A stretch of DNA of 64,000 bases from Phycisphaerales bacterium (lineage in GTDB: Bacteria > Planctomycetota > Phycisphaerae > Phycisphaerales > SM1A02). Where the stretch lies: NCBI GenBank assembly GCA_029260575.1, contig JAJDDB010000020.1:24189-88188 (forward strand). Reading direction: 5' to 3'. The notes beneath the pieces were generated by a model that did no database searches, had not been told where the DNA came from, and was given only the letters and a program-made list of their open reading frames with translations. Positions 17,936 through 36,712 of this stretch are shown here, piece by piece. Made by a program: the position numbers and the translations under genes. How positions within the stretch are numbered: the first letter of the stretch is position 1; each line of letters opens with the position of its first letter.

Positions 17936-18229
17936 TCGTGCGCGTCCCGCGTTTACGCAGCGTCCACGGCCAAGAAACGCACTTCCACGACCTAAAAACA
18001 CCTCTCCATGCTCCGTACTCGCGCGTGGACGACTTGAAAACGCGCGGTTTCGTCGTAAAACTGCGCACTATCATCGCATAACTGCGCGTTTTCGCCATGT
18101 AAGCGCGCGCTTTCGCCGCATAACTGCGCGTTTTCGCCGTGAAAGCGCGCGTTTTCGCCGTGAAAGCGCGCGCTTTCGCCGCGTAACGGCGCGTTTCTAT
18201 CGCAAAAACATCTCTTTCCATGAAGTCGC
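17936..18229. repeat. Degenerate 21-bp tandem array 1
   Basis: About fourteen adjoining units of exactly 21 bases run from near 17936 to 18229. Best units (18083-18187) start YGCGCG, have TTTTCGCC or CTTTCGCC in the middle and end GTGAAAG or GCATAAC. Outer units are more diverged (for example 17957, 17978 and 18020). Because 21 is a multiple of three, every frame encodes heptapeptide repeats. The minus strand is open throughout and reads AKTRAFT, AKTRSYA, AKARAYM; the plus strand has stops. There are no spacers, so it is not CRISPR. The array lies between the methyltransferase gene and the hypothetical gene at 18340. Confidence 0.8.
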
Positions 18230-18339
18230 CTTGCACTTGTGACGAACATGTGTGCATCACGCGGCTGGCAGGGCATCGACTGTATGTCGATTGCTCTCTC
18301 GCCGCATCTTCAACACATACATATGTAGAGGACACACTC

Positions 18340-19026
18340 ATGGCGACCAACTTCATTCCGAGCCGTGAAGCGGACCTGCTGGCATGGGCCAACAACTTTG
18401 CCACGCTCATTACCGCCGATCCGACCGCGTACGGCCTTGATGCCATTCAGGCGACGACCTTCAGCACCTATCGCGATGATTTTGCGACGGCGTACACGAC
18501 CAGCGTGGAACCGACCACGCGCACGCCTCCCAGCATCGTCACCAAGCGCAACGCCAAGGCCGTGCTGATTCAGAATGCCCGGCTACTGGCCCGCATCGTG
18601 CAGGCTGATCCGAGCGTCACTGACACGCAGATTGCGGACCTTGGCCTGACTGTTCGTGATGATGAGCCGACGCCGGTTCCTGTGCCCGACGAAGCGCCTG
18701 CGATGGACATTGTGTCGGTGACCGGCAGGATCATCAGCCTGCGGTTGCACGATCCGAAATCCGCATCCAAGCGCGGCAAGCCCGCTGGTGTACAGGGTGC
18801 AACCGTTCTCAGTTTCGTCGGCGATGAAGCGCCTGCGGACATCGACGATTGGACTTTCGAAGGCAGTATCACACGAACCACGATCGATGTTGAAATCGCA
18901 GCGACCGTGCCCGGCGGTTCCAAGGTGTGGCTGACCGCGTTCTGGTTCAACCCGCGATTACAGTCCGGCCCCGCAGCAGCCCCGCTGAGCACACGCATCG
19001 GCGACGGCCTGTCACAAGCAGCGTAA
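18340..19026 (+). CDS. Hypothetical protein, paralogue of the 34320 gene product
   Basis: The 228-residue protein begins MATNFIPSREADLLAWANNF, has a helical N-terminal half (about residues 1-105), a proline-rich hinge (EPTPVPVPDEAP) and a beta-rich C-terminal half (WTFEGSITRTTIDVEIA, then VWLTAFWFNPRLQSGPAA). No signal peptide. The same order of segments occurs in the protein at 34320-35282 (FIPDADSAF; WYLRSFTTSRFEVDF; VVYWGRWADASGG). AGAGGA lies seven bases before the ATG. A CATATG-centred palindrome lies just upstream and array 1 ends 110 bases upstream. Function unknown; no phage or toxin domain recognised. Confidence 0.65.
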   Translation: MATNFIPSREADLLAWANNFATLITADPTAYGLDAIQATTFSTYRDDFATAYTTSVEPTTRTPPSIVTKRNAKAVLIQNARLLARIVQADPSVTDTQIADLGLTVRDDEPTPVPVPDEAPAMDIVSVTGRIISLRLHDPKSASKRGKPAGVQGATVLSFVGDEAPADIDDWTFEGSITRTTIDVEIAATVPGGSKVWLTAFWFNPRLQSGPAAAPLSTRIGDGLSQAA

Positions 19027-19164
19027 CCCCCGGAAGTGAAGAAAGAGGACACGCGTCAGAGGCCGGATGAAAGTCTGGTCTCTGGCTTTACTTGTCTCAT
19101 CGCAGAGGGTTGAAAGCGAAACATCCGAACAGCCAAGATGCCAAACAGGATAAGGAATAGAACA

Positions 19165-19320
19165 ATGACGCAGACAAATACAAGTAAACAAGGCGGATTG
19201 TGGTTCGGCCCGCAGGACGAGGCCACTGAAAGCGAACCCGCGCAGCAGATTGAAGAACACGAGACGCTCGCTGAAGATGCAGATGCCGAAGTTGACTGCG
19301 AACCCGCGCAGGCAACGTAA
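19165..19320 (+). CDS. Small acidic hypothetical protein with GGLWFGP motif
   Basis: The 51-residue product has a short motif (KQGGLWFGPQDEA) followed by a strongly acidic tail rich in glutamate and aspartate. TAAGGA at 19151-19156 lies eight bases before the ATG. The motif resembles GGLRFGPPPEA in the C-terminal part of the next gene product (about residue 297), so the two may share a binding element. No signal peptide. Could be translated from the same message as the GNAT gene 76 bases downstream. Confidence 0.5.
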   Translation: MTQTNTSKQGGLWFGPQDEATESEPAQQIEEHETLAEDADAEVDCEPAQAT

Positions 19321-19333
19321 GGCAGACTTCAAG

Positions 19334-19374
19334 TTCTCTCTGTGTCCTCTGTACCTCTGTGGTGAATGTCTTCT
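19334..19374. repeat. CTCTGTGTCC/CTCTGTGG-type intergenic repeat
   Basis: This stretch contains phased CTCTGTGTCCTCTGTACCTC and TGTGGTGAA words. Related diverged copies are at about 21287-21319, 24378-24404, 30511-30539 and 34286-34317, most in short intergenic gaps. It looks like a dispersed non-coding repeat family. Confidence 0.5.
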
Positions 19375-19396
19375 TCTGGACCCCCGGAGTTCAGCC

Positions 19397-20557
19397 ATGA
19401 CCGACATTGTTCTTGAACATGAAAACACCGAGTCGAATCTGATCGCCCTGCCGCAACCTCGGCATGCCATTGATATCCGACAGGCGAAACTCGGCGATCT
19501 GCCGTTTGTTGATGATCTGCAGAAGAAGCATTCGAAGATGGTCGGGTTCTTCCCGAAGCCGTGGTTCGAGAAGAACATCACCGATGGCAAGGTGTTGATT
19601 GCAGAAACAGTCAACGAGCCGCGCCCGTCAGGAAGCGGAGCCGGCGAGAACGATTCAAGCGTCAACGAAGTTCGGGCGCACAACCCGCTCCCTCACCCCC
19701 GGAATGGTCGCGGCTCGTCACATCCGCTCGGGTACTGCATTGCCCATGATCGCTACTTCAAGCGTGATGATGTCGGCGTTGTGTATCAGCTCAACGTGAC
19801 CCCCGGAAGGCAGCGCGGCCTGATCGGCGCGTCTTTGATCAAAGCAGTCTTTGAACGTGCTGCGTATGGGTGCAAGCTGTTCTGCTGCTGGTGCGCGCAG
19901 GACCTGGATGCGAACCACTTCTGGGAGAGCATCGGGTTTGTGCCATTAGCATTCCGCACCGGTTCACGAGGAACCCCCGGAAGAAAGAACGCGGAACCTC
20001 GTATACACATTTTCTGGCAGAAGCGGATTCGGGAAGGTGATTGCGAAACTCCCTATTGGTTTCCATCGCAGACGCATGGCGGTGCAGTTCGTGAGAATCG
20101 ATTGGTGCTGCCGATCCCGCCGGGCACGCATTGGTCTGATGCGAAGCCTGCGGTGCTGCCGGGCATGGAGAAGATGGAAGCGGAGCGACAGGCGCTTCTG
20201 GAAAGTGACGCGGAGAAATCGAAACGCCCCCGGCAACGCGCACCGCGCAAGAAGAAGGTGGTGCAGAAGCCGAACGCGATTGCCAATGGCGGCTTGCGCT
20301 TTGGTCCCCCGCCTGAAGCGAAACCAGAGAAACCAAAGAAGGCAAAACGCGCACCGCTCAAGCACGATCCGAAGTACGTCGCAGCAGCGCGGGAGTTGAA
20401 GGATCGTTATCTGGATGAAGTGAATTCAGGGCGCATGCTGCCGAGTGCGGATGGGAAGTATGATGTGTCCCGGCAGTTGGAAGCAGCGCCGACAGTGTTT
20501 AATGCTGGTGGCAGCGCTGAGACAGTTGAGGAAATGCGCTTGCTTGATGCAGCGTGA
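19397..20557 (+). CDS. GNAT-family N-acetyltransferase with REP-derived insertion and basic tail
   Basis: The 386-residue protein starts with a GNAT domain: IDIRQAKLGDLPFVDDLQKK, VLIAET (about residue 70), then LGYCIAHDRYFKRDDVGVV and the acetyl-CoA-binding stretch NVTPGRQRGLIGASLIKAVF. CCWCAQDLDANHFWESIGF follows. Between VLIAET and LGYCIAH lie about 35 low-complexity residues (PRPSGSGAGEN to NGRGSSHP) encoded by an inverted pair of REP sequences (19613-19718). The C-terminal 120 residues are basic (KRPRQRAPRKKKVVQK) and carry GGLRFGPPPEA and MLPSADGKYDVSRQLEAAP. GGAG seven bases upstream serves as ribosome binding site. Substrate unknown. Its 3' end is duplicated at 21202-21352. Confidence 0.7.
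   Translation: MTDIVLEHENTESNLIALPQPRHAIDIRQAKLGDLPFVDDLQKKHSKMVGFFPKPWFEKNITDGKVLIAETVNEPRPSGSGAGENDSSVNEVRAHNPLPHPRNGRGSSHPLGYCIAHDRYFKRDDVGVVYQLNVTPGRQRGLIGASLIKAVFERAAYGCKLFCCWCAQDLDANHFWESIGFVPLAFRTGSRGTPGRKNAEPRIHIFWQKRIREGDCETPYWFPSQTHGGAVRENRLVLPIPPGTHWSDAKPAVLPGMEKMEAERQALLESDAEKSKRPRQRAPRKKKVVQKPNAIANGGLRFGPPPEAKPEKPKKAKRAPLKHDPKYVAAARELKDRYLDEVNSGRMLPSADGKYDVSRQLEAAPTVFNAGGSAETVEEMRLLDAA
19613..19718. repeat. Inverted REP pair inside the GNAT gene
   Basis: The left arm (19613-19638) contains ACGAGCCGCGCCCGTCAGG. The right arm (19685-19718) reads CCGCTCCCTCAC, then CCCCGGAAT, then GGTCGCGGCTCGT on the plus strand. They are inverted copies of one REP-like element; the right arm carries an extra nine bases that match the local ACCCCCGGAA motif. 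A third copy is at 35305-35329. All added lengths keep the reading frame open. Confidence 0.65.
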
Positions 20558-20602
20558 GTCTGTTTCTGATGCTCATTGAGGTGTAATGCCGACTTTTTCT
20601 GT

Positions 20603-21202
20603 ATGAATATCTGCATAAAGCGTGACAACCGCGTAAGAGTGTTGCGACAGGTACTTGCAATGTCAGCATTGTATATGGGCACGACGCAGGCAATCGCGGG
20701 AGTTACAGTCACGATCGAAGAGGTCGGCAATGACGTTGTTATGACCGGGGCAGGGACACTTGATCTCACGTTGTGGATGTATTATCTCCAAGGTGCCGGC
20801 AATACCGTGATCGAAGCATCCAATGGCATAACGTTGGGATCTCCTGCTGATATGGATATTTATTATCAGCCGATTGGGCTTACGGGTGCGTCCAATCTTG
20901 GGCCACTCGACAGCCCCCAGTATCCCGATGCCACGTCGGGAGATTTCCTGGGTTTGTGGTGGGAAGCGGATTTCCTGTTCGCGCCGCTCGGCTATGAATC
21001 CGGCGCTGAACTCACTGGTTCCGCGCATTATGAAGATGAATCTTTTCAGTCAATCGGACTGACCGAGGGGGTTTATACCTGGATGTGGGACACAACAACA
21101 GGGACAGATTTCTTCACTGTTCATGTTGTACCTGCACCGGGCGTGCTGGCGCTGCTCGGCATCGCAGGGATGTTTGGCGCGCGGCGTCGGCGAATGCGCT
21201 GA
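20603..21202 (+). CDS. Secreted protein with PEP-CTERM-like sorting signal
   Basis: The 199-residue product has a signal peptide (about residues 15-36: VLRQVLAMSALYMGTTQAIAG) and a beta-rich body. Its C-terminus is VPAPGVLALLGIAGMFGARR followed by RRMR: a short P-x-P motif, a hydrophobic helix and an arginine cluster, as in PEP-CTERM/exosortase substrates. Such signals route proteins to the outer surface. No exosortase gene is in the window. The gene sits between the GNAT gene and a duplicated copy of its 3' end. Function of the body unknown. Confidence 0.75.
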   Translation: MNICIKRDNRVRVLRQVLAMSALYMGTTQAIAGVTVTIEEVGNDVVMTGAGTLDLTLWMYYLQGAGNTVIEASNGITLGSPADMDIYYQPIGLTGASNLGPLDSPQYPDATSGDFLGLWWEADFLFAPLGYESGAELTGSAHYEDESFQSIGLTEGVYTWMWDTTTGTDFFTVHVVPAPGVLALLGIAGMFGARRRRMR

Positions 21203-21352
21203 TTCAGTGAAGCGCACATGCTGCCGTGCGCGGATGGGAAGTACGATGTGTCGCGGCAGTTGGATGCAGCGCCGACGTGCAATGGATTCTTCACCACGAA
21301 GGGCACGGAGAGCACACAGGCTGAGACGGTGCGATTACTTGACGCGGCGTAA
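21202..21352 (+). pseudogene. Duplicated 3' fragment of the GNAT gene
   Basis: This segment mirrors the last 138 bases of the GNAT gene (20420-20557). Both encode MLP.ADGKYDVSRQL.AAP and end R.LLDAA before a stop (TAA at 21350). The copy carries an in-frame insertion containing TTCACCACGAAGGGCACGG, a member of the dispersed repeat family. It has no upstream part, so it is a gene remnant or a duplicated tail, separated from the original by the PEP-CTERM gene. Confidence 0.7.
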
Positions 21353-21449
21353 ACGGCTCTGCTCGTATTTGGTGCAATTCAGAAATCGACGTCGATAATG
21401 CTGACAGTCGATCACGAGTATCGATATACGTTGTCGACGAGGTGTTCTT

Positions 21450-21950
21450 ATGCGAGACGTTCTGCTGGCTTTGGTCTTTCTCTGTCTCGCCGGATGTGCA
21501 AAGTCCAATCTACGATCGTGCATGGAACGCGCTGCCGCACCATCGAAAGGTGTGAAGCAGACGCAATTCGCTCACATTGGCGAGTTGCACATCGATGATC
21601 GGGTGTATCACGTCGCTACACAACGCCTTGTCCTAGAAGTGATGCTTGCCCCGCGTGGACTGCGGCATCGCCTTCTCATCTTTGATAATGATGCACGACT
21701 CGTTTCAACGTACGAGTACAACTTTGATTCGGCAGAACCACTGTGGTGCCATGGATCGCGCGTTTATCTCTTCGGCAACGGATCGTTCATGGGAATCGAA
21801 CCTGGTCCGAGACTTGTATTGATGGCATCCGAAGATGAGCAACCGATCGGAAACGTGATCGATTTTTCGAACGGGCCAACCTCGCCGATTCTGACTCGTG
21901 AGAAGCAGTACGGCAGTTCCGGTGGTATTGAAGATGATCCGTGGCGATGA
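21450..21950 (+). CDS. Putative lipoprotein
   Basis: The 166-residue product begins with a lipoprotein signal peptide (MRDVLLALVFLCLAGCAK) whose lipobox LAGC puts the acylated cysteine at residue 16. The rest is soluble and beta-rich (HIDDRVYHVATQRLVLEVML, LLIFDNDARLVSTYEYNF). No known domain. It stands alone between the GNAT/PEP-CTERM locus and the dehydrogenase operon. Confidence 0.6.
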   Translation: MRDVLLALVFLCLAGCAKSNLRSCMERAAAPSKGVKQTQFAHIGELHIDDRVYHVATQRLVLEVMLAPRGLRHRLLIFDNDARLVSTYEYNFDSAEPLWCHGSRVYLFGNGSFMGIEPGPRLVLMASEDEQPIGNVIDFSNGPTSPILTREKQYGSSGGIEDDPWR

Positions 21951-22201
21951 CGTCGGTGAGATACGCTCTTATGTCGCACTAACCACTTTACGAATCCTGC
22001 CTCCGCGATTTCCCCGGACTCCGTAGTGAATCCCTCCTCCTGCCAGTACCTCTATCTCCCCTGCTCGTGGCCTGATTCGCGGTGGTCCGCTATCCTGTAG
22101 GGGCCCGAAGTGGGACGGGCGACTCCAGAATTCGGCCGGCCAGAGCTTCTGAGAAGTGCTTTCGCATTGCCAGAAGTCATCGCAGCGAGGTTCTTGCGCA
22201 A

Positions 22202-23347
22202 ATGCCTTTGAAAAAAGCTTTTACGACCACGATCGACAACGTCTCGATCCTCGATGAACACGGCAGCTTCGATGCCAAACTCGGCGCACCCGGAGGCAAG
22301 CCGATTATCCCTGATGACGATCTGGTCAAGCTGTACGAGCACATGTGCCTGTGCAGGAAGTACGACGAGGTGGCGTTCAAGCTGCAGCGGTCCGGCCGCA
22401 TGGGCACCTATCCCGAGAACCGCGGGCAGGAAGCGACGTCGCTCGGGGCTGCCTATGCCCTGAACGGCGACGACTGGCTGGTGCCGTGCTATCGCGAGAA
22501 TGCGGGGCTGTTCTGGCGCGGGCTGCCTTTGGAATTTGTCCTGCTGCACTGGATGGGTGATGAGCGCGGCAACGCCATTCCCGAGGGCATGTGCATCACG
22601 CCGCTGGCCATTCCGATCGGCACGCAGATGCTGCACGCAACCGGCCTGGCGTGGGCGTCGAAGTATCGCAACGAAAAACGTCTTGCGTGCACATTCTTCG
22701 GCGATGGCGCGACAAGCGAAGGCGACTTCCACGAAGCAGCGAACTTCGCAGCCAACCTCGACATCCCGGTGATCTTCTTCTGCCAGAACAACGGCTGGGC
22801 GATCTCCGTGCCGACGAAGATTCAGTGCAGCGCGCCGACGATCGCGCAGCGCGGCATTGCATACGGCATGGACAGCATTCAGTGTGATGGCAACGACATC
22901 TTCGCTGTTGTGTACTGCATGAAGGAAGCAGCGAAGCGGGCTCGTGAAAACAATCGGCCGACGTTCATTGAAGCAGTCACGTATCGCCTTGGCGATCACA
23001 CCACCGCTGACGATGCCCGTCGGTATCGCGATGCCAAGGAAGTTGAGAAGTGGAACAATCGCGATCCGATGATCCGCCTGCGAAACTATCTCGTGCAGCG
23101 CAAGCTCTGGGATGATGCCAAGCAGGAAGCTGCTGTTGCCCGTGCAAAGGAAGCAGTGACTGCTGCGGTAAAGCGTGCGGAAGAAATCGCATCGCCGAAG
23201 ACGGCAGACATTTTCAATTCGATGTACGCAGAGTTGCCGGATGATCTTGTGATTCAGCGTGAGACGATGATGACGCATTCATTGGGACAACATCCGGAAG
23301 AGTTGCCGCCAACCAGTACGCAGCAGCGCACGCATCAGCAGGCATAG
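22202..23347 (+). CDS. pdhA: 2-oxoacid dehydrogenase E1 component, alpha subunit (pyruvate-dehydrogenase type)
   Basis: The 381-residue thiamine-diphosphate enzyme decarboxylates a 2-oxoacid and passes the acyl group to the lipoyl arm of E2. The TPP/Mg motif is clear: FFGDGATSEGDFHEAANFAA followed by FFCQNN (about residues 170-200). YRENAGLFWRGLP and GNAIPEGMCITPLAIPIG resemble the Bacillus-type PdhA. HTTADDARRYRD is the phosphorylation-loop region. Pyruvate is most likely, but a branched-chain 2-oxoacid cannot be excluded, since leucine dehydrogenase is nearby. The beta subunit follows after 45 bases. Confidence 0.9.
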   Translation: MPLKKAFTTTIDNVSILDEHGSFDAKLGAPGGKPIIPDDDLVKLYEHMCLCRKYDEVAFKLQRSGRMGTYPENRGQEATSLGAAYALNGDDWLVPCYRENAGLFWRGLPLEFVLLHWMGDERGNAIPEGMCITPLAIPIGTQMLHATGLAWASKYRNEKRLACTFFGDGATSEGDFHEAANFAANLDIPVIFFCQNNGWAISVPTKIQCSAPTIAQRGIAYGMDSIQCDGNDIFAVVYCMKEAAKRARENNRPTFIEAVTYRLGDHTTADDARRYRDAKEVEKWNNRDPMIRLRNYLVQRKLWDDAKQEAAVARAKEAVTAAVKRAEEIASPKTADIFNSMYAELPDDLVIQRETMMTHSLGQHPEELPPTSTQQRTHQQA

Positions 23348-23392
23348 CTCAACATTCGCATTCAACAAACAGCTCTTGAGCTTTGATTCACT

Positions 23393-24361
23393 ATGGCAAA
23401 CCTCACACTCGTACAGGCAATCAACCTCGCGCTCATCCAGGAAATGGAAGATGACGATCGCGTCATCATCCTCGGCGAAGATGTCGGGCCCAACGGCGGC
23501 GTCTTCCGCGTCACCGAGGGTTTGCATCAACGATTCGGAAGCGATCGCGTCGTCGACACACCACTTGCAGAATCCGGCATCATCGGCTCAGCAATCGGCC
23601 TGGCAATGGCGGGCCTGCGGCCGATCCCTGAGATTCAGTTCGAGGGTTTCCTCGGCCCCGCGTTTGATCAGATTTGCACACACGCAGCCCGCATGCGCAC
23701 CAGAACCCGTGGGGCGCTCACCGTTCCGTTGACCATCCGCGTGCCCGTCGGCGGCGGCATTCACGCACCGGAACTGCACAGCGACAGCCCTGAATCGTTC
23801 TACGCGCATCAGCCCGGCTTAAAAGTCGTCATGCCGGCCTCGCCGTATGACGCAAAGGGATTGTTGATCTCCGCAATCCGTGATCCGGACCCGGTGATCT
23901 ACTTCGAACCCAAACGAATCTACCGCGCATTCCGCGAAGAAGTGCCCGAAGATGAATACACGATCCCGATTGGCAAGGCCCGCGTAGTCTCGGAAGGCGA
24001 TGACATCACGATTGTTTCGTGGGGCGCTTCGGTTGTGCAGTGCATGAAAGCTATTGAAGCCAGCGATCGTTCAATCGAACTGATCGATTTGCGAACGATC
24101 TACCCACTGGACATTGAAACGATCGAAGCATCAGTCAAGAAAACCGGACGCGTTGTCGTCGTCCACGAAGCGCCGCTGACAGCCGGCTTCGGCGCTGAGA
24201 TCGCTGCTCGTGTTATGGAACATTGCTTCCTGTATCTGGAAGCGCCTGTGCAGCGCGTCACCGGCTTCGACACAATCATGCCGTACTACAAACTTGAACT
24301 GGAATATCTCCCCGAAGCGGAACGCATCGCTACTGCGATCGATCATGTTGCGGCGTATTAA
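23393..24361 (+). CDS. pdhB: 2-oxoacid dehydrogenase E1 component, beta subunit
   Basis: The 322-residue subunit pairs with the alpha chain to form the E1 active site. Typical segments are VIILGEDVGPNGGVFRVTEG (about residue 24), DTPLAESGIIGSAIGLAMAG, IEIQF-type PIPEIQFEGF, and VKVV-type LKVVMPASPYDAKGLLISAI. The C-terminal transketolase domain shows IELIDLRTIYPLDIETIEAS and VVVHEAPLTAGFGAEIAARV. It is closest in appearance to Gram-positive PdhB. Between it and the E2 gene lie 45 bases holding one of the CTCTGCGGTGAA repeats. Confidence 0.92.
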   Translation: MANLTLVQAINLALIQEMEDDDRVIILGEDVGPNGGVFRVTEGLHQRFGSDRVVDTPLAESGIIGSAIGLAMAGLRPIPEIQFEGFLGPAFDQICTHAARMRTRTRGALTVPLTIRVPVGGGIHAPELHSDSPESFYAHQPGLKVVMPASPYDAKGLLISAIRDPDPVIYFEPKRIYRAFREEVPEDEYTIPIGKARVVSEGDDITIVSWGASVVQCMKAIEASDRSIELIDLRTIYPLDIETIEASVKKTGRVVVVHEAPLTAGFGAEIAARVMEHCFLYLEAPVQRVTGFDTIMPYYKLELEYLPEAERIATAIDHVAAY

Positions 24362-24406
24362 TCGAGCTGACATTCTTTTCCTTACACGCCTCTGCGGTGA
24401 ATACTC

Positions 24407-25771: not shown

Positions 25772-25870
25772 ACCGCCGATCAACTTTGACACTATGTGCT
25801 ATAGAAGGCGAACTCCGAAGCGTCAGCCGGTCGTTGACGTGTGGGCGGTTCCAGAAGTGATGAACACACT

Positions 25871-27238: not shown

Positions 27239-27242
27239 CGTT

Positions 27243-28091: not shown

Positions 28092-28124
28092 CATCAGAGT
28101 TCGCGGTCGTGTATCGTCACCACC

Positions 28125-29234
28125 ATGCGTGTCGTGCATATCACATATCAACACTCCGCAGATGATGCGCGGATATTGCACAAGCAGTGTCGCTCGCTTG
28201 CTGAAGCAGGGCTCGACACGCATCTGCTTGCGCCGCCCCCCAAGCCGCCGAAGCTATTCGGCGTGACGCTCCACTCTTTGAATACCGACATCACCGGCAA
28301 CAAACTACGACGGCTTCGTAAATGGTTCACGCAGATAAAAGTGATTGTTGCGGACGTTTGCCCCGACATCATTCACCTGCACGATCCTCTGCTGCTGCGT
28401 CTTGCCAGACACTTTTGCGCCGAAACCCGCGCCCGGCTTGTGTATGACGCACATGAAGATCATGCACGGCAGATCCGTGCGCTGTCGCATTTGTCGTGGG
28501 CACGGCGCACTACGCAAGCAGCGCTGTACGGCCATCTTGAACGTAATGCACCAAAATGGATTGACCTGTTCGTCGCTGCCACGCCGGGGATTGCTGACCA
28601 CTATCCTGCGGATCGCACAATCACTGTGCGCAACCTGCCGCGGCTGTCAGACTTTGAACCTACTCACGCGCAAGCGCGAAACGCGTCGATGATATACGTC
28701 GGCGGCCTGACCCGTTCGCGCGGCATCATCGAAATGATCGACGCCATTGAGCTTGTGCAGCATGATGATGCACGATTGATCCTTGCGGGAAAGTTCGACA
28801 GCGACGAAACGCGACGCGCTGCGGAATCGCGACCGGGTTGGAAACATGTTGATTTTCGAGGTTGGGTGGATCACGCGCACGTGCCGACGTTGCTGGACAA
28901 TGCTGCTGCCGGTCTTGTCGTCCTGCATCCCAAGCCGAACTACCTTGACGCCTGGCCGGTAAAATTATTTGAGTATATGGCTTCCGGCCTGCCGTTCATT
29001 GCATCCAGTTTTCAGCCATGGCGCGATATGCTCAGCAACGAAAAATCCGGAATCTTTGTCGACCCGCTGGATGTGCGCGCGATCGCTGCGGCGATGGAGC
29101 AACTGCTGCACCATCCAAACGATTCCGCCGCAATGGGCGCAGTCGGCCGCGCACGGATCGAGCGCGATTTGCACTGGCAGCGCGAAGCTGCAATTTTGTT
29201 GCGCGGCTATGAAACGCTGGGCGTACGGACCTGA
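28125..29234 (+). CDS. Family 4 glycosyltransferase
   Basis: The 369-residue GT-B protein has an N-terminal acceptor domain (MRVVHITYQHSADDARILHK; DIIHLHDPLLLRL; LVYDAHEDHARQI). The C-terminal donor domain shows MIYVGGLTRSRGIIEMIDAI and VVLHPKPNYLDAWPVKLFEY, with the EX7E region near FEYMASGLPFIAS. It likely adds a sugar to the surface polysaccharide supported by neighbouring genes. Its 3' end overlaps the convergent gene at 29207 by 28 bases. Confidence 0.87.
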   Translation: MRVVHITYQHSADDARILHKQCRSLAEAGLDTHLLAPPPKPPKLFGVTLHSLNTDITGNKLRRLRKWFTQIKVIVADVCPDIIHLHDPLLLRLARHFCAETRARLVYDAHEDHARQIRALSHLSWARRTTQAALYGHLERNAPKWIDLFVAATPGIADHYPADRTITVRNLPRLSDFEPTHAQARNASMIYVGGLTRSRGIIEMIDAIELVQHDDARLILAGKFDSDETRRAAESRPGWKHVDFRGWVDHAHVPTLLDNAAAGLVVLHPKPNYLDAWPVKLFEYMASGLPFIASSFQPWRDMLSNEKSGIFVDPLDVRAIAAAMEQLLHHPNDSAAMGAVGRARIERDLHWQREAAILLRGYETLGVRT

Positions 29235-30376
29235 TCCGCAAATGTTTCGATTGCCGGGGCGCAACACGCTGAAGACGCGCCGCAGTCACCGACAAGTGTT
29301 CGCGCGACATCATTCCACGTCTGAATGTCCGCCCGCCAATCATCGCTGCGCGGCAGTTGCAGTGCGGTACTGAACGATTGCAGAGCAGATTGATCATTGC
29401 CCGGCTCATACGTCACGACATTCTGCCGATCGCTTGTAATGAACTGCGGCGCAACGATCGGCAGCCGACACCATGAGTATTGCATCATCTTCAGACTGTC
29501 TGCGAACGACTCCGCGCCCGGGCCACCTGTAATCGTTTGCAAGCCGACGTCAGCAAACTTCACAAACGGGACACTCTGTTCGAACGGAAGCTCGCCGTGG
29601 TAGAAGATGTTCGATCGCTGCGGTTTCTTTTCAACCGGCCCGATGATATGGAAATCGACATCGCGTCGGGCGTTACTGAGCACATCGAGATACCAGTGAT
29701 CAAATCGGGCCACGCCGGTGAACACCGCCGTCGTATGATCGTTGGTGAACGGCGATGTCTCACAACTCTCAAAGAGTTGCGCCGGCACGCCGTGCCGATC
29801 CAGCCGAGCGGCAGGCAGATGCGCAAACTTTTGGTGAATTGTCTCCGTCGGTGAACTGATGCAATCGAATAGTTTCGCCAGTTGCATCTCACGTTCGTGC
29901 AAGGTCGGCGGCACACGCAACGTACACAAATCATCGGAAACGCGGTACACCATGCGGGCGCGAGCATTGAGTTGCCGAAATCGGTCCGCCAATACAAGTG
30001 CGGAAGTACTTTCGAAGATAAAGCACTCCGCATTCTCGACTTCTGATTCGATCGCGCCGAGCTGTTGTCGCTCAAATCGATCAAAGACTGGCCGGGCAAG
30101 CTGGTTGAGCGCTTTGTATTTCAACGCAACAGGATGCACCGCCGTCCACGAGATGTAACTTCCCAGTCGATCATCCGACCAGATGATCCGGCCGGCCTGT
30201 TTGCGCACGCCGTACTGCATGCGGTGATCGCGATTCAGCCAGGAGAGCCAACTGATCGGCGTGGTCATCATGATCACCCGCCAACCGCAGCTATGTAGCG
30301 CATCCGCAAGCCAGTGAAACCCCGCCCGCCGCTGCGAGTGCAAGTAATGGCCGGTGATGAGTATGACTGTTCGCAT
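29207..30376 (-). CDS. GumK-like glycosyltransferase
   Basis: The 389-residue product begins MRTVILITGHYLHSQRRAGF followed by HWLADAL, like the N-terminal domain of GumK-type (GT70) glucuronosyltransferases. FIFESTSALVLADRFRQLNA and ARMVYRVSDDLCTLRVPP belong to the acceptor half. HGVPAQLFESCE, AVFTGVARFDHWYLDVLSNA, and DVGLQTITGGPGAESFADSL with KMMQYSWCRLPIVAPQF form the donor half. It could transfer the uronate made by the adjacent nucleotide-sugar genes, which is inference from context. An upstream in-frame start at 30436 looks spurious. It ends inside the convergent GT4 gene. Confidence 0.7.
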   Translation of the reverse strand: MRTVILITGHYLHSQRRAGFHWLADALHSCGWRVIMMTTPISWLSWLNRDHRMQYGVRKQAGRIIWSDDRLGSYISWTAVHPVALKYKALNQLARPVFDRFERQQLGAIESEVENAECFIFESTSALVLADRFRQLNARARMVYRVSDDLCTLRVPPTLHEREMQLAKLFDCISSPTETIHQKFAHLPAARLDRHGVPAQLFESCETSPFTNDHTTAVFTGVARFDHWYLDVLSNARRDVDFHIIGPVEKKPQRSNIFYHGELPFEQSVPFVKFADVGLQTITGGPGAESFADSLKMMQYSWCRLPIVAPQFITSDRQNVVTYEPGNDQSALQSFSTALQLPRSDDWRADIQTWNDVARTLVGDCGASSACCAPAIETFADQVRTPSVS

Positions 30377-30541
30377 AGTCAACCACAGTGTAGCCGCACA
30401 AGGCTCATGGCAGAGGCTCAGTATTCGCACAGACATCGCAGGTGTCTCTGCAAGCGCCTCAACACAAGAAGCCGCTGTCTAAGAATTGGCGGCTGCACAC
30501 GAGGTCGAATCCTCTTCGTCCTCTGCGTCTCTGCGGCGCCA

Positions 30542-31732
30542 TCAGGCCACCGATGCGTGCTGCTTGACGAATTCGATCACCGTATTCGCAACATGGTGCA
30601 ACTGCTCATCCGTCAATTCAGGATAGATAGGCAGCGCGATCGTTTGATTTGCAGCAGATTCAGACTGCGGCAAGTCGCCGGTCGAGTAACCGAGATATTC
30701 AAAGCACTGCTGCTGATGCAGCGGCACCGGATAGTAAATCTCTGTGCCGATGTTGCGATCCTTCATGAAATCACGAAGCGCATCGCGCTGATCTTCGGGC
30801 ACTCGGATGACATACTGATTGTAAATGTGCCGAGCGGGTCCATCCGGGCACGTCGGATAGCGCAGTGGCAGCCCGCCCTCCAGCAGTGGATGCGCAGTCG
30901 TCTTTGCCCCGGCATCTGCAAACAGCTTGTCATATGTCTTGGCATTGCTGCGTCGACCTTCATGCCATGTGTCCAGATAACGCAGCTTGACCTGCAAGAC
31001 AGCTGCCTGCAGCGCATCCAGACGTGAATTCACACCGATGATGCTGTGGTAATACTTCGGTTTGCCGCCGTGCAATCGCAGAATGCTCAGGCGTTCGGCA
31101 AGTTTGTCATCGTTGGTTGTGACGATGCCGCCATCACCAAAGCCGCCGAGGTTCTTGGATGGGAAGAAACTAAAACACCCGATTGTGCCTCGGCTGCCTG
31201 TGGGTGCTCCGGTGTCGTCAAGCGTACCAATCGCCTGCGCTGCATCTTCAACAATCGGCACGTTGAACTGCTTACCGAGTGCAAGGTAGGCATCCATATC
31301 ACACGCCTGGCCAAACAGATGCACGGGCATAATCGCTTTGAGGCGAGTGCATTTTGCTGCTGCTTCGCGGACAAGTTCCGGGTCCATGTTGTACGTCACC
31401 GGGTCGATATCAACGTACACAGGTTTGACGCCGAGGCGGGCAATTGAACCGCCGGTCGCAAAGAACGTAAATGACGGGCAAATAACTTCATCGCCTGCCT
31501 GCACCTCGAGAGCCATCAACGCGAGCAGCAGCGCATCAGACCCGGAAGCGCAACCGATCGCATGCTTGACGTTGCAATACTGCGCGATGTCCGTCTCAAG
31601 CGCCTGCACTGTCGGCCCCATGATGAAGTACTGACTTTCGATAACTTCCGTAATCGCAGTCTGAATTTCATCGCGAAGCGTGGCGTACTGGGCCTTCAAG
31701 TCAAGCAGTGGAACGTTGATGGAGTTGCTCAT
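30542..31732 (-). CDS. wbpE: DegT/DnrJ/EryC1/StrS aminotransferase (WbpE-like)
   Basis: The 396-residue PLP enzyme transfers an amino group to a keto nucleotide sugar. Key segments: VPLLDLKAQYATLRDEI, GCASGSDALLLALMAL (cofactor phosphate site), VEDAAQAIG and FSFFPSKNLGGFGDGGIVTT with the Schiff-base lysine in PSKNLG. HIYNQYVIRVP and EIYYPVPLHQQQCF match sugar aminotransferases. In the WbpABED pathway this step makes the 3-amino sugar. The start codon overlaps the WbpD-like stop (TAATG). A CTCTGCG-type repeat lies downstream at 30511-30539. Confidence 0.88.
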   Translation of the reverse strand: MSNSINVPLLDLKAQYATLRDEIQTAITEVIESQYFIMGPTVQALETDIAQYCNVKHAIGCASGSDALLLALMALEVQAGDEVICPSFTFFATGGSIARLGVKPVYVDIDPVTYNMDPELVREAAAKCTRLKAIMPVHLFGQACDMDAYLALGKQFNVPIVEDAAQAIGTLDDTGAPTGSRGTIGCFSFFPSKNLGGFGDGGIVTTNDDKLAERLSILRLHGGKPKYYHSIIGVNSRLDALQAAVLQVKLRYLDTWHEGRRSNAKTYDKLFADAGAKTTAHPLLEGGLPLRYPTCPDGPARHIYNQYVIRVPEDQRDALRDFMKDRNIGTEIYYPVPLHQQQCFEYLGYSTGDLPQSESAANQTIALPIYPELTDEQLHHVANTVIEFVKQHASVA

Positions 31733-32343
31733 TAATCCTGAACCTCATGTTTCGGCGATAGCATCTCGCCGAGTTGTTCGTATGTGTTGCCGCAGGCATC
31801 GCAGGTGTACGATTCGCCCCTGGTGTTGTTCAATGTTTCGCCACATCGGCAGGCCCATGCCCCGCGCCGTGCAGGCACGCCCAGCATCAAGCCGTAATCG
31901 GGAACATCTTTGGTCACAACCGCGCCTGCACCGATGAGCGCATATTTCCCGATTGTTGTGCCGCAGACAATGGTGCAATTTGCGCCGAAACTTGCGCCTC
32001 GCTTCACGAGTGTCTTTCGATATTCATCACGCCGGGGAATCTCACTACGCGGGTTTATGACGTTGGTGAACACCATCGACGGACCGCAGAAAACGTAGTC
32101 TTCTAATTCCACGCCGGTATACAGCGACACGTTGTTCTGAATCTTGCAGTGATTGCCAATCGTTACGTTCGGCGAAACCACAACATTCTGCCCGATGTTG
32201 CATCCCATACCGATCCGGCTGTTCTTCATCACATGCGAAAAATGCCAGATGCTTGTGCCCGCGCCGATTTCGCATGGCTCATCAATGCATGCTGTCTCGT
32301 GAATCTTTGTGTCCGGGAATGTCGATGTTGCAACGCTGCTCAT
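31732..32343 (-). CDS. wbpD: Left-handed beta-helix N-acetyltransferase (WbpD-like) with zinc-ribbon tail
   Basis: The 203-residue protein has hexapeptide repeats (IGAGTSIWHFSHVMKNSRIG, MGCNIGQNVVVSPNVTIG, NHCKIQNNVSLYTGVELE) and the segment VFTNVINPRSEIPRRDEY typical of WbpD/WlbB. These enzymes acetylate UDP-2-acetamido-3-amino-glucuronate. The C-terminus adds a four-cysteine ribbon (CRCGETL...CDACGNTY, about residues 166-190), as in some homologues. It overlaps the WbpB-like gene by four bases and the WbpE-like gene by one, a tight operon. Confidence 0.86.
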   Translation of the reverse strand: MSSVATSTFPDTKIHETACIDEPCEIGAGTSIWHFSHVMKNSRIGMGCNIGQNVVVSPNVTIGNHCKIQNNVSLYTGVELEDYVFCGPSMVFTNVINPRSEIPRRDEYRKTLVKRGASFGANCTIVCGTTIGKYALIGAGAVVTKDVPDYGLMLGVPARRGAWACRCGETLNNTRGESYTCDACGNTYEQLGEMLSPKHEVQD

Positions 32344-33422
32344 GATTGTGCTGTGCTGACTCGCGTTCCTGCACCGGGTACAACGGTCACAGCAGGCTCA
32401 ATGTCGCGCGATCGCGAACGCAACTCATCAAGCACAACATCCGTCGGCCGGCCGTTGGTCATCATAGATCGCTGGGCTGCGTGCAGAATCTGCAGCACCC
32501 GCACACCGCTCACACCGTCCGTCAACGGCTGCTGCCGCGATTCAATACAGTCAACAAAGTGCTGGCATTCACGATCGAGCGGCATTTCGTCACCAAACGC
32601 AACAGCAACGCCTTCACCTTTGACCGGCACCGGCTGGCCCTTCTCCCAATCGACACGCTGGTCATACAGCAGCAGCGACTTGGAAACATCATCGAAGCTT
32701 GCCATCTTCTTTGAACCAACCACAACGAGCTTCTGTTCTTTAAACGGATGCAGCCAGCTCACGAAAATGTGCGAGCGCACACCGTTGTCGAACAGCAGTT
32801 GCGTCACGGTCACGTCAGCAATATTCGGGCTGACATATTCCCCGCCGGTGGCGACGACTTCGATCGGCGCGCTGCCGACGAGCCGGAGAATCACTGCAAT
32901 GTCATGCGGCGCGAACGACCACAGCGCGTTTTCTTCCGTGCGAATCTTGCCGAGGTTCAATCGGTTGCTGATGACATAGCGAATGCTGCCGAGTTCACCG
33001 GACTGAATAAGTTCGTGCAGCTTGAGGATCGCCGGGTGGTACTCCAGCAGGTGGCCGACCATCAGAATCCGACCGAGGCTGCGTGCCAATCGCACCAGTT
33101 CGCGTGCTTCATCGACATCAATGGTCAGCGGCTTCTCGACAAAGACATCCTTGCCTGCGGTCAATGCCCGCCGGGCCAGATCAAAATGCGTTTCCGCAGG
33201 GGTTGCAATCATGACCCCCCGGATCGACTCGTCATCCAGCACCGCCTGAGGGTCGTTGTAAAACGCCGCATCCGGAGCAAGTTCGCGCGCGGTGGCCGCA
33301 CCCGTTTTCGACGGATCAACAACCGCCCGCAGGTGCCCGAGTTTACTGAGGGTGCGAACAATGTTCTTACCCCATCCGCCGCACCCGAGCACGGCGATGT
33401 GTGCTGCACTATCCAATGTCAT
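32340..33422 (-). CDS. wbpB: Gfo/Idh/MocA oxidoreductase (WbpB-like)
   Basis: The 360-residue NAD-dependent oxidoreductase has the Rossmann motif IAVLGCGGWGKNIVRTLSKL (about residue 9), then VMIATPAETHFDLARRAL and the family signature VFVEKPLTID (about residue 97). The middle has GRILMVGHLLEYHPAILKLH and ALWSFAPHDIAVILRL, with the catalytic histidine region. In the pathway it oxidises C3 of UDP-GlcNAcA. ATG 33422, preceded by GGAG, is preferred; GTG 33458 would add 12 residues. The divergent methyltransferase gene starts 151 bases away. Confidence 0.87.
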   Translation of the reverse strand: MTLDSAAHIAVLGCGGWGKNIVRTLSKLGHLRAVVDPSKTGAATARELAPDAAFYNDPQAVLDDESIRGVMIATPAETHFDLARRALTAGKDVFVEKPLTIDVDEARELVRLARSLGRILMVGHLLEYHPAILKLHELIQSGELGSIRYVISNRLNLGKIRTEENALWSFAPHDIAVILRLVGSAPIEVVATGGEYVSPNIADVTVTQLLFDNGVRSHIFVSWLHPFKEQKLVVVGSKKMASFDDVSKSLLLYDQRVDWEKGQPVPVKGEGVAVAFGDEMPLDRECQHFVDCIESRQQPLTDGVSGVRVLQILHAAQRSMMTNGRPTDVVLDELRSRSRDIEPAVTVVPGAGTRVSTAQS

Positions 33423-33573
33423 GTGCTCCAGGTATTTGGAGGTTTGGGTGACGGCCACGCTGCTGGGTCACAGCAGTCTGGCGGCTCCGCCACGGGCTGG
33501 ATAACCTACCATTGACCTTCTCCCCGGTCAACAATTTGTTGGCCACAGCAGCGTTTCTCGCAAGGAGCAATCC

Positions 33574-34278
33574 GTGTCCACGACGATCAGGCCGGTGTAT
33601 GAATCCTCAGCTGAGGCGCTCGCCGCAACGGACTCCTTTTACGGCTCCGCAGCCGGGTTCGAATACACCCCCGAGCAGGTTCGCAACTGGCTGACGCTCT
33701 ATATCCCCCGCCTGCCCAAAGCCGGCCGGGTGCTCGATCTCTGCTGCGGCGATGGCGTGTGGTCCGCAGGGATTGCAGAATTGAACCCGAATCTGGAACT
33801 GCATGGCATTGACATCAGCACCGGCGGAATCGACAAGGCCCAGCGAAATTTGCCCGGGCACAAATCGAGATTCGTCGTAGGCGACGCTGAACAGCAATTA
33901 CCCTTCCCCGATGGCACCTTTGATCTGATATTCGCTCGCGGCCCCGGCCTCTTTAATCAACACTCGATGGACCGCCCCGCTGCAATTGCGGTCATCGAGA
34001 AGTGGCATCGCGCTCTTGCGCCCTCCGGCCGAATGATCTCGATCTTCTATTCCAGCCCGGAACTGATGGGCACGTATACGAACCCGCTCAAAGTCGCCCT
34101 GCCATACAACCGTGCGCCGCGTTTGACCGATGCAGTGGACTTCACCGGCGGCAAGTTCCACCACACCATTGCAACCTTCCAACTTCCGTTTCGAAAAGCC
34201 GCCAACGTCAAGCTCGGCGAATATCGTTTCGTGCGCAACAATCACATTCTGGAAACCCGGCTCAATGCCGAAGGCTGA
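33574..34278 (+). CDS. Class I SAM-dependent methyltransferase
   Basis: The 234-residue protein shows the SAM-binding core: RVLDLCCGDGVWSAGIAELN (motif I, about residue 55), LHGIDISTGGIDKAQRNL, then FVVGDAEQQLPFPDGTFDLI and a FARGPGLFN segment. WHRALAPSGRMISIFYS is the later core strand. Substrate unknown; position beside the sugar genes suggests glycan or lipid methylation. Start is GTG 33574, six bases after AAGGAG. Confidence 0.83.
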   Translation: MSTTIRPVYESSAEALAATDSFYGSAAGFEYTPEQVRNWLTLYIPRLPKAGRVLDLCCGDGVWSAGIAELNPNLELHGIDISTGGIDKAQRNLPGHKSRFVVGDAEQQLPFPDGTFDLIFARGPGLFNQHSMDRPAAIAVIEKWHRALAPSGRMISIFYSSPELMGTYTNPLKVALPYNRAPRLTDAVDFTGGKFHHTIATFQLPFRKAANVKLGEYRFVRNNHILETRLNAEG

Positions 34279-34285
34279 GGGAGAA

Positions 34286-34317
34286 GAATTCACCACGGAG
34301 ATCGCGGAGGGCGCGGA
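34286..34317. repeat. TTCACCACGGAG-type intergenic repeat
   Basis: GAATTCACCACGGAG followed by ATCGCGGAGGGCGCGGA lies just after the methyltransferase stop and before the convergent gene end. It is a diverged inverse-orientation copy of the repeat at 19334-19374. Confidence 0.4.
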
Positions 34318-34319
34318 CC

Positions 34320-35282
34320 TCAACCGCACGGCAGCGCACGCACCTCCCGCACATCGGGCTTCGCCTCGATCTGCCCGCACATCTCCGTCATCGGCATCAC
34401 ACGAAAATCCTCGTGCCGCCCGCCCGCCAGCCGAAACGGACTCGCACCACCCGGCAGGTACTGCGGCGCGTTCTCCACCGGCGCTGCGCAGGTCTGCGAA
34501 AACGGCCCGACACCGCCCGACGCATCCGCCCATCGACCCCAATACACAACGCGCATCGGCACCGGCCGATCACCATCAAACAGCCTCGGAAAATCAACCT
34601 CGAACCGGCTCGTCGTAAACGAACGCAGATACCAGAGCCGCCCGCCGCTGCGGGCACCGGGGTGCGTCGGAATCGGCTCATCGATCGGCACCAGCTCCAC
34701 AAATAATTCCAATCGCACCGTCCCGTGCGGCTTGGCGGTGCTCGCGCGATCGAAGTCATTGCGATATTCGAGAATGTGCCTGCCGCCCTGCGCCGCATTT
34801 CCGTACGGATCGGTCGAGCCGATGAACTTCAGGATCGGCGCGACCTGCGGGCATACAAGGCGACGTGTTTGACGCTTGGATCGCTTGGGCATGTTCAGAT
34901 TCATGCGATCGACCTCGGTCAGCGAATCCTCCGCCGTGCCGCGCACAAACTTTGCCACGCTGCGGACGATTCGCTCCGCTTCCTTGCGCGCATCGTTCTT
35001 GATCCGCGTCGCTCGCGGCCCCGCGCTGCTGTGATGAATAGTCCTGGTCAGCGCATCACGAAACGCTGCAACGGCATTGTTCAGCTCATCAACCTTTTCC
35101 GGGGCGACATCCAACCGCTCCGCATGCTGCTCGATGTGCGCTGCGAAGTGTTTCGCCATAAGCGCAAAGGCGCTGTCCGCATCGGGGATGAAGCGGGTTG
35201 TCCGCGCCTTGCCGCCGCGCAGGCGATATTTGCGCTCGCGAAGCTCTTTCAGTGTCCGGTCGATGCGTCGTCGTCGTGCCAT
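34320..35282 (-). CDS. Hypothetical protein, paralogue of the 18340 gene product
   Basis: The 320-residue protein begins with a basic tail (MARRRRIDRTLKELRERKYR), then a helical domain (FIPDADSAFALMAKHFAAHI to about residue 135). A beta-rich C-terminal domain follows (RLWYLRSFTTSRFEVDFPRL; MRVVYWGRWADASGGVGPFS). Segment order and spacing match the protein at 18340-19026, though the pair is quite diverged. No signal peptide or catalytic motif. Its start lies 23 bases from a REP copy (35305-35329) and about 97 bases from the 21-bp array 2, echoing the position of array 1 upstream of its paralogue. Confidence 0.65.
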   Translation of the reverse strand: MARRRRIDRTLKELRERKYRLRGGKARTTRFIPDADSAFALMAKHFAAHIEQHAERLDVAPEKVDELNNAVAAFRDALTRTIHHSSAGPRATRIKNDARKEAERIVRSVAKFVRGTAEDSLTEVDRMNLNMPKRSKRQTRRLVCPQVAPILKFIGSTDPYGNAAQGGRHILEYRNDFDRASTAKPHGTVRLELFVELVPIDEPIPTHPGARSGGRLWYLRSFTTSRFEVDFPRLFDGDRPVPMRVVYWGRWADASGGVGPFSQTCAAPVENAPQYLPGGASPFRLAGGRHEDFRVMPMTEMCGQIEAKPDVREVRALPCG

Positions 35283-35304
35283 GGCAGGGCATCCTTTGCT
35301 TCAA

Positions 35305-35329
35305 CCGCTTCCTCACGGGCGCGGCTCGT
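35305..35329 (+). repeat. Single REP copy
   Basis: The copy contains the core CTCACGGGCGCGGCTCGT preceded by CCGCTTC. It matches the arms of the inverted pair inside the GNAT gene (19613-19718). It sits between array 2 and the start of the hypothetical gene at 35282. Confidence 0.65.
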
Positions 35330-35379
35330 TCTGGTTGCGCTTATCGGCCGCACCACCGGCCAGCTTGACGCCAGACCGC

Positions 35380-35631
35380 TGTTTCACCGAAAAAACGCCG
35401 GTGTCCGCCGCTCACATGCCTATTCCGCACGCTCACACTCGAGTGTGAGCCGCCCACGCAGCCGTGTGACCGGCAGATTCATTCGTGTCAGCTGCCCGCG
35501 CGGCGGTGTGCAACGCATCCCCAGCCGTGTCTTTCGCACACCCGGGCAGGTCAACAACACCCCCGGCCGTGTGCATCGTCGGCACAGCCATGTCGGCAGC
35601 AGCCCCGTTTGCGCATCGGTGCGCACGAGAC
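35380..35631. repeat. Degenerate 21-bp tandem array 2
   Basis: Twelve consecutive 21-base units begin at 35380, 35401, 35422 and so on up to 35611. Most start GTGTG or GTGTC on the plus strand (35401, 35443, 35464, 35485, 35506, 35527, 35569) and several end in CAGCC or CGGCC. The remaining bases vary widely. Both strands have open frames across it. The unit sequence differs from array 1, but the period is identical and the location relative to the related gene is the same. No spacers or palindromes typical of CRISPR. Confidence 0.7.
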
Positions 35632-35928
35632 GAATTCAGGTGCGCGATGACGGTGAATGGTTTCCCGACGCGCCGCACGGGACGCGCAATCGCCGAAGCA
35701 TGATGCGCAGCGCATGCCGATGTGTGCGCATCTGCCCGATCACTGTGCGACACAAAGGTGCGCAGACGTGCGCCGCACGGCAGCGGGTTTCGGCAGTGAG
35801 TCTTAGGATTCAAAACCAAGCGTGCGGAGTTGGAAACATCGTCGGTCAATCACAGTTCATTGTTAGGGAGTTGGTTTGATGCTGGTTCGTTCCATTGCAT
35901 TGGCGGGTCATGCGGCAACCGTTAGCAG
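35632..35928. other. Intergenic region downstream of the HepT-like gene
   Basis: This stretch between array 2 and the HepT-like stop has GTGCGCA/TGCGCAC-rich sequence up to about 35770, perhaps further eroded repeat units without strict 21-base phase. No gene or terminator is supported. Confidence 0.35.
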
Positions 35929-36652: not shown

Positions 36653-36712
36653 GCTCAGTTGCCGCCCGCGACCCGGAGAGCAGGCGTCCAACCGGCAACC
36701 GGATTATCCATC
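36653..36712. repeat. Direct repeat, copy 2
   Basis: The 60-base copy begins GCTCAGTTGCCGCCC and ends CAACCGGATTATCCATC, with GCAGGCGTCCAACCGGC inside. It ends 36 bases before the transposase start codon at 36749, a typical location for REP sequences next to a RAYT gene. Confidence 0.6.

What the first reader, a model, noticed from the sequence alone, without database searches (positions are those of the whole stretch)
17936..35631. Candidate undescribed system: paralogous hypothetical genes each preceded by a 21-bp array
The proteins at 18340 and 34320 share a helical FIP-start domain and a C-terminal domain with matching WxFxxSxTx and WF/WG-xP/RW-type segments. Each gene has a 21-bp array about 100-110 bp upstream of its start codon, on the 5' side, in accessory DNA, although the array sequences differ. 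This recurrent gene-plus-array layout is not explained by known features. It could be an autoregulatory binding platform, a protein-DNA defence or partition module, or a coding array with its partner.
Basis: partly seen in the sequence, partly recalled or inferred. Interest (0 to 1): 0.75.

Follow-up and report, generated by a model that had tools for sequence, protein, structure and literature searches.

The report
Planctomycete genes with private 21-bp arrays
Bacteria of the phylum Planctomycetota carry an uncharacterised gene family, with some twenty copies in this genome, in which most tested members are preceded by their own row of about twelve apparently non-coding repeats spaced 21 (in one branch 20) bases apart; the row is likely a docking strip for a paired DNA-binding protein, probably the gene's own product, and would be a gene-control or DNA-tethering arrangement not described before.

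Summary
The proteins at 18340 and 34320 belong to one undescribed family (predicted helical domain plus fibronectin type III fold; no Pfam hit over its cut-off). Of 108 family members tested, 77 have a 20- or 21-bp tandem array upstream, against 14 of 1217 other genes of this genome. In 1.66 Mb of the genome 21-bp arrays outnumber those of any other period, and 12 of 21 lie 57-462 bp from a family gene or fragment. The association reaches other families of the phylum.

Coding repeats are rejected as a general explanation (18 of 77 arrays have stops in all six frames; 20-bp arrays cannot keep one frame). Units tend to be palindromic (combined p 4e-18) but the two arms do not covary: this fits a symmetric protein-binding DNA site, not an RNA hairpin. 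The 8 strongest motifs of 22 occur nowhere else in the 1.66 Mb. Period 20 needs one change on the protein tree.

Best reading: a private DNA platform, one site per two helical turns, likely bound by the gene's own product. Binding, binder and function are inferred.

The parts
17950..18280 (+). Array 1: about 11-14 units of 21 bp, GCGCGYTTTCGCC...GAAAGCGC-type core, palindromic (p=0.010)
18340..19026 (+). Gene 1: 228-aa protein, predicted helical domain (about residues 1-105) plus fibronectin type III fold (about 113-222), C-terminus ...SQAA
   Evidence: ORF; family; AlphaFold2 pLDDT 93.4; FnIII match
19397..20557 (+). Companion GNAT-like gene (start taken by eye at the MTD residues; the ORF is open from 19250), C-terminus ...LLDAA
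34320..35282 (-). Gene 2: 320-aa distant paralogue with a basic N-terminal extension, C-terminus ...LPCG
35364..35634 (-). Array 2: about 10-11 units of 21 bp, weaker and different in sequence from array 1 (palindrome p=0.059)

Best explanation
This is a phylum-wide, multi-copy family of predicted two-domain proteins whose genes mostly sit just downstream of their own, apparently non-coding array of 20- or 21-bp units, and the array is likely a DNA docking strip predicted to be bound, one symmetric protein unit per two helical turns, by the gene's own product, which would thereby control its own expression. Shown by calls: the gene-array association, the 21/20-bp period, the palindromic tendency without covariation, the confinement of the strongest unit motifs to their own array, and that period 20 sits on one branch of the protein tree. 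Inferred: that a protein binds the array, that the binder is the helical-FnIII protein as a dimer, that binding is cooperative along one face of the DNA, and that the effect is autoregulation with mutual insulation of the paralogues. The frequent ...AA C-terminus (49 of 61) resembles this organism's tmRNA tag (ANSQYALAA), so the protein may also be a short-lived ClpXP substrate; that is a guess from sequence.
For: Association: 77 of 108 members against 14 of 1217 control genes, Fisher p 4e-84, rows not independent. Census of 1.664 Mb: 21 arrays at lag 21, 1 at lag 20, at most 7 at any other lag (lag 27); 12 of the 21 lie 57-462 bp from a family gene or fragment, and the 10 next to intact genes are all on the 5' side. 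It reaches other families of the phylum: best lag-21 matches of 50-82 of 84 at 11 of 11 copies tested of genomes G071 and G120. 27 of 63 arrays (55 family, 8 solo) palindromic at p<=0.05, combined p 4e-18. Within-unit arm pairing not above between-unit pairing (57 arrays, mean z -0.16, p 0.41), as expected for two half-sites read by a symmetric protein and not for a hairpin. The 8 of 22 arrays whose unit motif has a median of at least 20 bits have no equal match outside themselves in 1.66 Mb, which argues against a shared regulon. Period 20: one change on the tree, 0 of 500 shuffles as low, although cores among those rows differ. Cores are alike in three pairs whose proteins are 64-74% identical (similarity 0.75-0.89).
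Against: 31 of 108 members have no 20/21 call; two of these were called at lags 18 and 24. Isoelectric points run from 4.4 to 11.6, and strongly acidic members also have arrays, e.g. L026. No known DNA-binding fold was recognised: FnIII plus a helical bundle with only generic matches. In five close groups substitutions are as common in the conserved half of the unit as in the variable half (97/682 against 104/708, summed); only L004/L030 shows constraint (60/178 against 79/164, p 0.008), on an alignment of repeats that is uncertain. Proteins 45-60% identical do not share cores more than distant ones (mean 0.32 against 0.29-0.35), the one pair above 75% has only 0.48, and L054/L056, 29% identical, have 0.77. 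The 14 weaker motifs (10.9-18.2 bits) have 1 to 260 matches elsewhere; array 2 of the window has 7, 4 of them in other arrays. None of the 8 arrays of period 20 is significantly palindromic. The period-20 branch has modest support (65/81; one change in 68% of bootstrap trees). No sigma-70-like site was found by either window array. Of the 22 arrays of the census 10 have no family hit within 1 kb.
Confidence: 0.5

Rival explanations
1. The array is the operator or assembly site of a different DNA-binding protein encoded elsewhere, and the helical-FnIII protein is only the regulated product.
For: No DNA-binding fold recognised in the product; wide range of isoelectric points; some arrays stand without the gene.
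Against: The 8 strongest arrays each have a motif with no equal match elsewhere in 1.66 Mb, so a separate regulator would be needed per copy; no regulator was recognised among recurrent neighbours; period 20 follows a branch of the product's tree.
Confidence: 0.22
2. The array is transcribed into an RNA (antitoxin-like as in type III toxin-antitoxin loci, or guide-like as in CRISPR or TIGR) that works with the protein.
For: Layout of repeats upstream of one gene; half-conserved, half-variable units; palindromic units could be hairpins. An AAAGGAGGTG stretch precedes the array in 3 loci.
Against: No covariation between the arms, with or without G-U pairs; a period near 21 over unrelated sequences fits B-DNA geometry; fold matches are FnIII and generic bundles, though a fold not listed is not excluded; no Rfam match at the two window arrays; in the close pairs printed units keep their order instead of turning over.
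Confidence: 0.13
3. Centromere-like or silencing platform: the protein coats the array to tether, position or insulate the DNA, without controlling its own gene.
For: About 12 sites on one face of the helix resembles parC and iteron arrays; 20-bp repeats are known for pSK41 ParR (PMC9426499, passage read).
Against: No ParM, TubZ or ParA-like gene was recognised among recurrent neighbours; some twenty copies in one genome; on the 5' side at all 10 intact genes of the census.
Confidence: 0.1
4. Neutral satellite: the arrays are tandem duplications that happen to persist at these loci.
For: Higher-order repeats of 60 and 63 bp in L004 and L054; no excess constraint on the cores in five close groups.
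Against: Period 20 or 21 across unrelated sequences and families; odds ratio 213 at one gene family; palindromic bias.
Confidence: 0.05

Closest known systems
ParR/parC plasmid centromeres (pSK41 20-bp repeats, R1 11-bp repeats) and replication iterons
   Same: Tandem direct repeats of about one or two helical turns, just upstream of a gene of the system; sequence and spacing differ between families (ParR: passages of PMC9426499; iterons recalled).
   Different: No ribbon-helix-helix or Rep protein recognised, no NTPase partner recognised, some twenty copies in one genome; binding not shown.
Type III toxin-antitoxin loci (ToxIN, CptIN, TenpIN)
   Same: Tandem repeats upstream of one gene (passages of PMC5086642).
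   Different: No RNA-type covariation, no convincing terminator between array and gene at the two window loci, fold matches of another kind (FnIII, helical bundle).
TIGR-Tas and CRISPR arrays
   Same: Units with a conserved and a variable part next to one protein gene.
   Different: 20/21-bp units against 36-nt tigRNA units (PMC12045711, passages); no Nop, HNH or RuvC match in Pfam; units keep their order in the close pairs looked at.
REP/RAYT palindrome families (recalled)
   Same: Short palindromes, locus-specific sequence, near IS200-like ORFs at two places (by eye).
   Different: The IS200-like ORF is not among the recurrent neighbours; the period is fixed, and the linked gene is not a transposase.

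Membership tests
ParMRC-type centromere module | Direct-repeat array upstream of the operon | tested here: met
ParMRC-type centromere module | Adjacent filament-forming NTPase (ParM, TubZ) or ParA | tested here: not met
   Around 27 copies, ORFs shared by at least 3 other loci are the family gene, a GNAT-like ORF (11 of 27), a small CxxC ORF and antisense shadows; 16 of 27 copies have no such recurrent partner gene. Neighbours found at fewer loci were not identified one by one
ParMRC-type centromere module | Ribbon-helix-helix (or winged-helix) DNA-binding adaptor | tested here: inconclusive
   Predicted helical bundle plus FnIII; helical domain has only generic fold matches
Type III toxin-antitoxin | RNA antitoxin with base-paired fold | tested here: not met
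   No covariation of arms in 57 arrays
Type III toxin-antitoxin | Rho-independent terminator between repeats and gene | tested here: inconclusive
   Array 1: two overlapping 5-pair or weaker hairpins at 18177-18193; array 2: none on the gene's strand between array and start; other loci not scanned
Type III toxin-antitoxin | ToxN-like endoribonuclease fold | tested here: inconclusive
   Fold matches are FnIII and generic helical bundles; a family not listed is not excluded
TIGR-Tas | Nop domain protein | tested here: not met
   hmmscan of both window proteins against Pfam-A gave no Nop match at E<=0.1
TIGR-Tas | Array transcribed and processed to 36-nt RNAs | not testable with these tools
   No RNA data; the unit is 20/21 bp
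Fibronectin type III fold | FnIII beta sandwich in the C-terminal half | tested here: met
Known anti-phage defence systems | Match to a PADLOC model | tested here: not met
   No match for the two family proteins or the GNAT-like protein

The most novel reading that the evidence does not exclude
Each helical-FnIII protein polymerises along its own 20/21-bp array, one symmetric unit per two turns, into a private nucleoprotein filament; dozens of such protein-DNA address pairs diverge in parallel inside one genome, a new class of self-addressed chromosomal regulator that uses a fibronectin-type scaffold on DNA.
Probability: 0.3. Interest if true: 0.88.

Novelty: categorically new. Interest (0 to 1): 0.74.

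Why it matters
A gene family of Planctomycetota without annotation turns out to carry a strict, testable DNA signature: an array of its own with a period of two helical turns. If the protein reads the array, it would be a DNA-binding family with no recognised DNA-binding fold, and its many paralogues with unrelated motifs would form a natural series for studying how protein-DNA specificity diverges. The period switch from 21 to 20 on one branch gives a direct structural prediction.

Tried and rejected
Coding array (heptapeptide repeats): rejected as a general explanation. 18 of 77 arrays have a stop in all six frames, and 7 have a 20-bp period. Some arrays do have an open frame (31 of 55 on the gene's strand, 36 of 55 on the other); L116 is preceded by AAAGGAGGTG, so a coded leader there is not excluded.

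RNA or DNA hairpin: a first test seemed to show covariation (mean z 1.22, 51 of 63 arrays above 0), but the dyad centre had been chosen on the same data. With the centre chosen on between-unit pairing the signal vanished (mean z -0.16).

Array polarity (CRISPR-like growth from one end): suggested by eye, rejected (49 arrays, mean rho -0.02, p 0.55).

Array as the end of a mobile element: in L005/L024 and L027/L048 homology starts at the distal end of the array, but in L041/L042 it continues beyond it, and the near-identical pair L025/L071 is a patch from about -380 to +142, which looks like gene conversion. Not established.

Stronger constraint on the conserved half: not seen in five groups (97/682 against 104/708), seen only in L004/L030.

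Recurrent partner: a GNAT-like ORF beside 11 of 27 copies; 24 of 27 GNAT hits lie within about 4 kb of a family hit or 11 (my comparison of the listings); the other three are G003:C246, G030:C175 and G036:C142, the last two at the first bases of their contigs. It cannot be the general binder, as most of the 27 copies lack it.

Paper searches listed no paper whose title or abstract start describes this family or its arrays; the library holds only open-licence papers. Read: passages of PMC12045711, PMC9426499 and PMC5086642; every other paper only as a search listing.

The array rule used for counts (at least 43 of 84 matches, at least 3 above every other lag from 16 to 26) was set after looking at the data; it was applied unchanged to the 1217 control genes. 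The control genes are longest non-overlapping ATG ORFs of 150 aa or more, not an annotation, and may include genes that face the same arrays from the other side. The tree used a slightly different label rule (6 rows with period 20, 55 with 21, 18 with none).

Rows left out before counting: fragments and contig-edge hits (G039:C21, G039:C16, G049:C3, G053:C67, G057:C9, G057:C14:213221, G030:C19, G000:C28 twice, G000:C29, G000:C27:105142, G000:C27:135587), L103 and L117 and repeats of places already used, L127 (same place as L002); none; of the 22 places so taken, L108 and L113 had too little upstream DNA, 27 of the 30 rows with loci were used (not L264, L267, L273), and rows without loci were not fetched. 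L247, whose upstream DNA matches at many lags, was counted as having no array.
Full report
WHAT IS THERE. The window holds two members of one protein family, at 18340-19026 (+, 228 aa) and 34320-35282 (-, 320 aa), each with a 21-bp periodic array on its 5' side (17950-18280 and 35364-35634). Array 1 is found by TRF; array 2 is weaker, but both stand out in a lag scan (161 against 73, and 119 against 76 for the best other period) and against shuffles (13.1 and 4.8 s.d.). The two proteins align only weakly with each other but are linked by intermediate members in the same genome.

THE ASSOCIATION. With one rule, an array of period 20 or 21 was called upstream of 47 of 61 members, 15 of 20 and 15 of 27, in all 77 of 108; two further members were called at lags 18 and 24. 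The same rule called 14 of 1217 other genes of this genome (Fisher p 4e-84; rows are related, so the p-value is nominal). Across 77 arrays the median is 12 units, and the array ends a median 153 bp before the start codon. In 1.664 Mb of the own genome 21 arrays are specific to lag 21 and 1 to lag 20, against at most 7 for any other lag (lag 27). Twelve of the 21 are within 57-462 bp of a family hit: ten next to ten intact genes, always on the 5' side, and two flanking one fragment at C27:620903. Of the other nine, two look like coding sequence (C27:147130, C4:197629, by eye), one has a family fragment 1.7 kb away (C27:133688), and one shares its flank with array 2 but has no gene (C2:60070, by eye).

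The association is not a local peculiarity. In G071 and G120, which belong to other families of the phylum, all 11 copies tested have lag-21 matches of 50 to 82 of 84. Members without an array are scattered over the tree (14 changes against a shuffled mean of 16.3); the close kin of L130 all lack one.

ANATOMY. Units often have a conserved stretch of about 10-17 nt and a variable rest (by eye). Palindromy beyond column-shuffled controls is seen in 27 of 63 arrays at p<=0.05 (55 family arrays and 8 solo; combined p 4e-18). If these were hairpins, the arms should covary from unit to unit; with an unbiased choice of the dyad they do not (57 arrays, mean z -0.16, p 0.41; adding G-U pairs changes nothing). 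Palindromic consensus without covariation is what a symmetric protein reading DNA leaves behind (inference from general knowledge). Exactly 21 bp is two turns of B-DNA (10.5 bp per turn), so all sites would lie on one face. The 8 arrays of period 20 are not significantly palindromic.

WHO READS IT. The unit motifs of the 8 strongest of 22 arrays (median at least 20 bits) have no equal match elsewhere in 1.66 Mb, which argues against a shared regulator. The 14 weaker motifs (10.9-18.2 bits) have 1 to 260 matches elsewhere, as low-information motifs would; array 2 of the window has 7, of which 4 lie in other arrays. The only gene found next to most of these arrays is the helical-FnIII gene. Period 20 needs one change on the tree of 79 proteins (6 rows; support 65/81; 68% of bootstrap trees; shuffled mean 5.8 changes, 0 of 500 as low), though the cores among those rows differ (L004/L005/L024/L030 against L068, with the fragment L020, against L006). 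Core similarity rises weakly with protein identity (Spearman 0.22 over 601 related pairs): three pairs at 64-74% identity are at 0.75-0.89, but the one pair above 75% is at 0.48, pairs at 45-60% are no more alike than distant ones, and L054/L056 at 29% reach 0.77. Against it: no recognised DNA-binding fold, and isoelectric points from 4.4 to 11.6.

MODULE AND TAIL. Beside 11 of 27 sampled copies lies a GNAT-like ORF on the same strand, starting within about 1.6 kb after the gene; 24 of 27 such hits in 61 genomes lie near a family hit. All 12 GNAT ORFs or pieces end in LDAA, and 49 of 61 family proteins end in AA, while the members of G071 and G120 do not. The tmRNA tag of this genome is ANSQYALAA. 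A shared degron-like tail is a guess, untested.

HOW IT LIKELY WORKS. The protein, likely as a dimer, would dock on about a dozen sites in register along the strip upstream of its own gene, and so set its own level; paralogues in one genome would stay insulated because each has its own motif. Shown: association, period, symmetry without covariation, privacy of the strongest motifs, and one branch for period 20. Inferred: binding, the identity of the binder, cooperativity and autoregulation.

LIMITS. 40% of the own genome was scanned. The calling rule was set after inspection. Members are related and partly orthologous. Close orthologue groups show no extra constraint on the conserved half of the unit, which would fit slow array turnover or a neutral reading. 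No expression data exist here.

Noticed in passing
window 19397-20557: GNAT-like ORF that recurs 3' of the family genes (11 of 27 copies); all 12 such ORFs or pieces end in LDAA.
   Followed up: partly
window 19165-19320: Small ORF between gene 1 and the GNAT-like gene whose GGLWFGP stretch resembles the GGLRFGP stretch in the GNAT-like protein (by eye).
   Followed up: no
window 16506-17881: BglII-type restriction endonuclease (Pfam E 4e-41) followed by an MT-A70 methyltransferase (E 7e-31), directly upstream of array 1.
   Followed up: partly
G000:C27:669700-670175 (L202): Highest-scoring 21-bp array of the census, without a family gene; its left units look like the reverse complement of its right units.
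   Followed up: partly
G000:C27:620532-621619 (L200): A family gene fragment flanked by two different 21-bp arrays.
   Followed up: no
L100, L107, L116: An AAAGGAGGTG (Shine-Dalgarno-like) stretch lies just before the array in three copies of two genomes.
   Followed up: no
L145/L148 (G057): Two paralogues nearly identical from about -380 to +142 and clearly less alike after that: looks like gene conversion over array and gene start.
   Followed up: yes
window 35929-36306 and 36659-37339: HepT-like ORF (Pfam E 2e-9) and a weak IS200-like transposase match (E 0.07) next to array 2.
   Followed up: no
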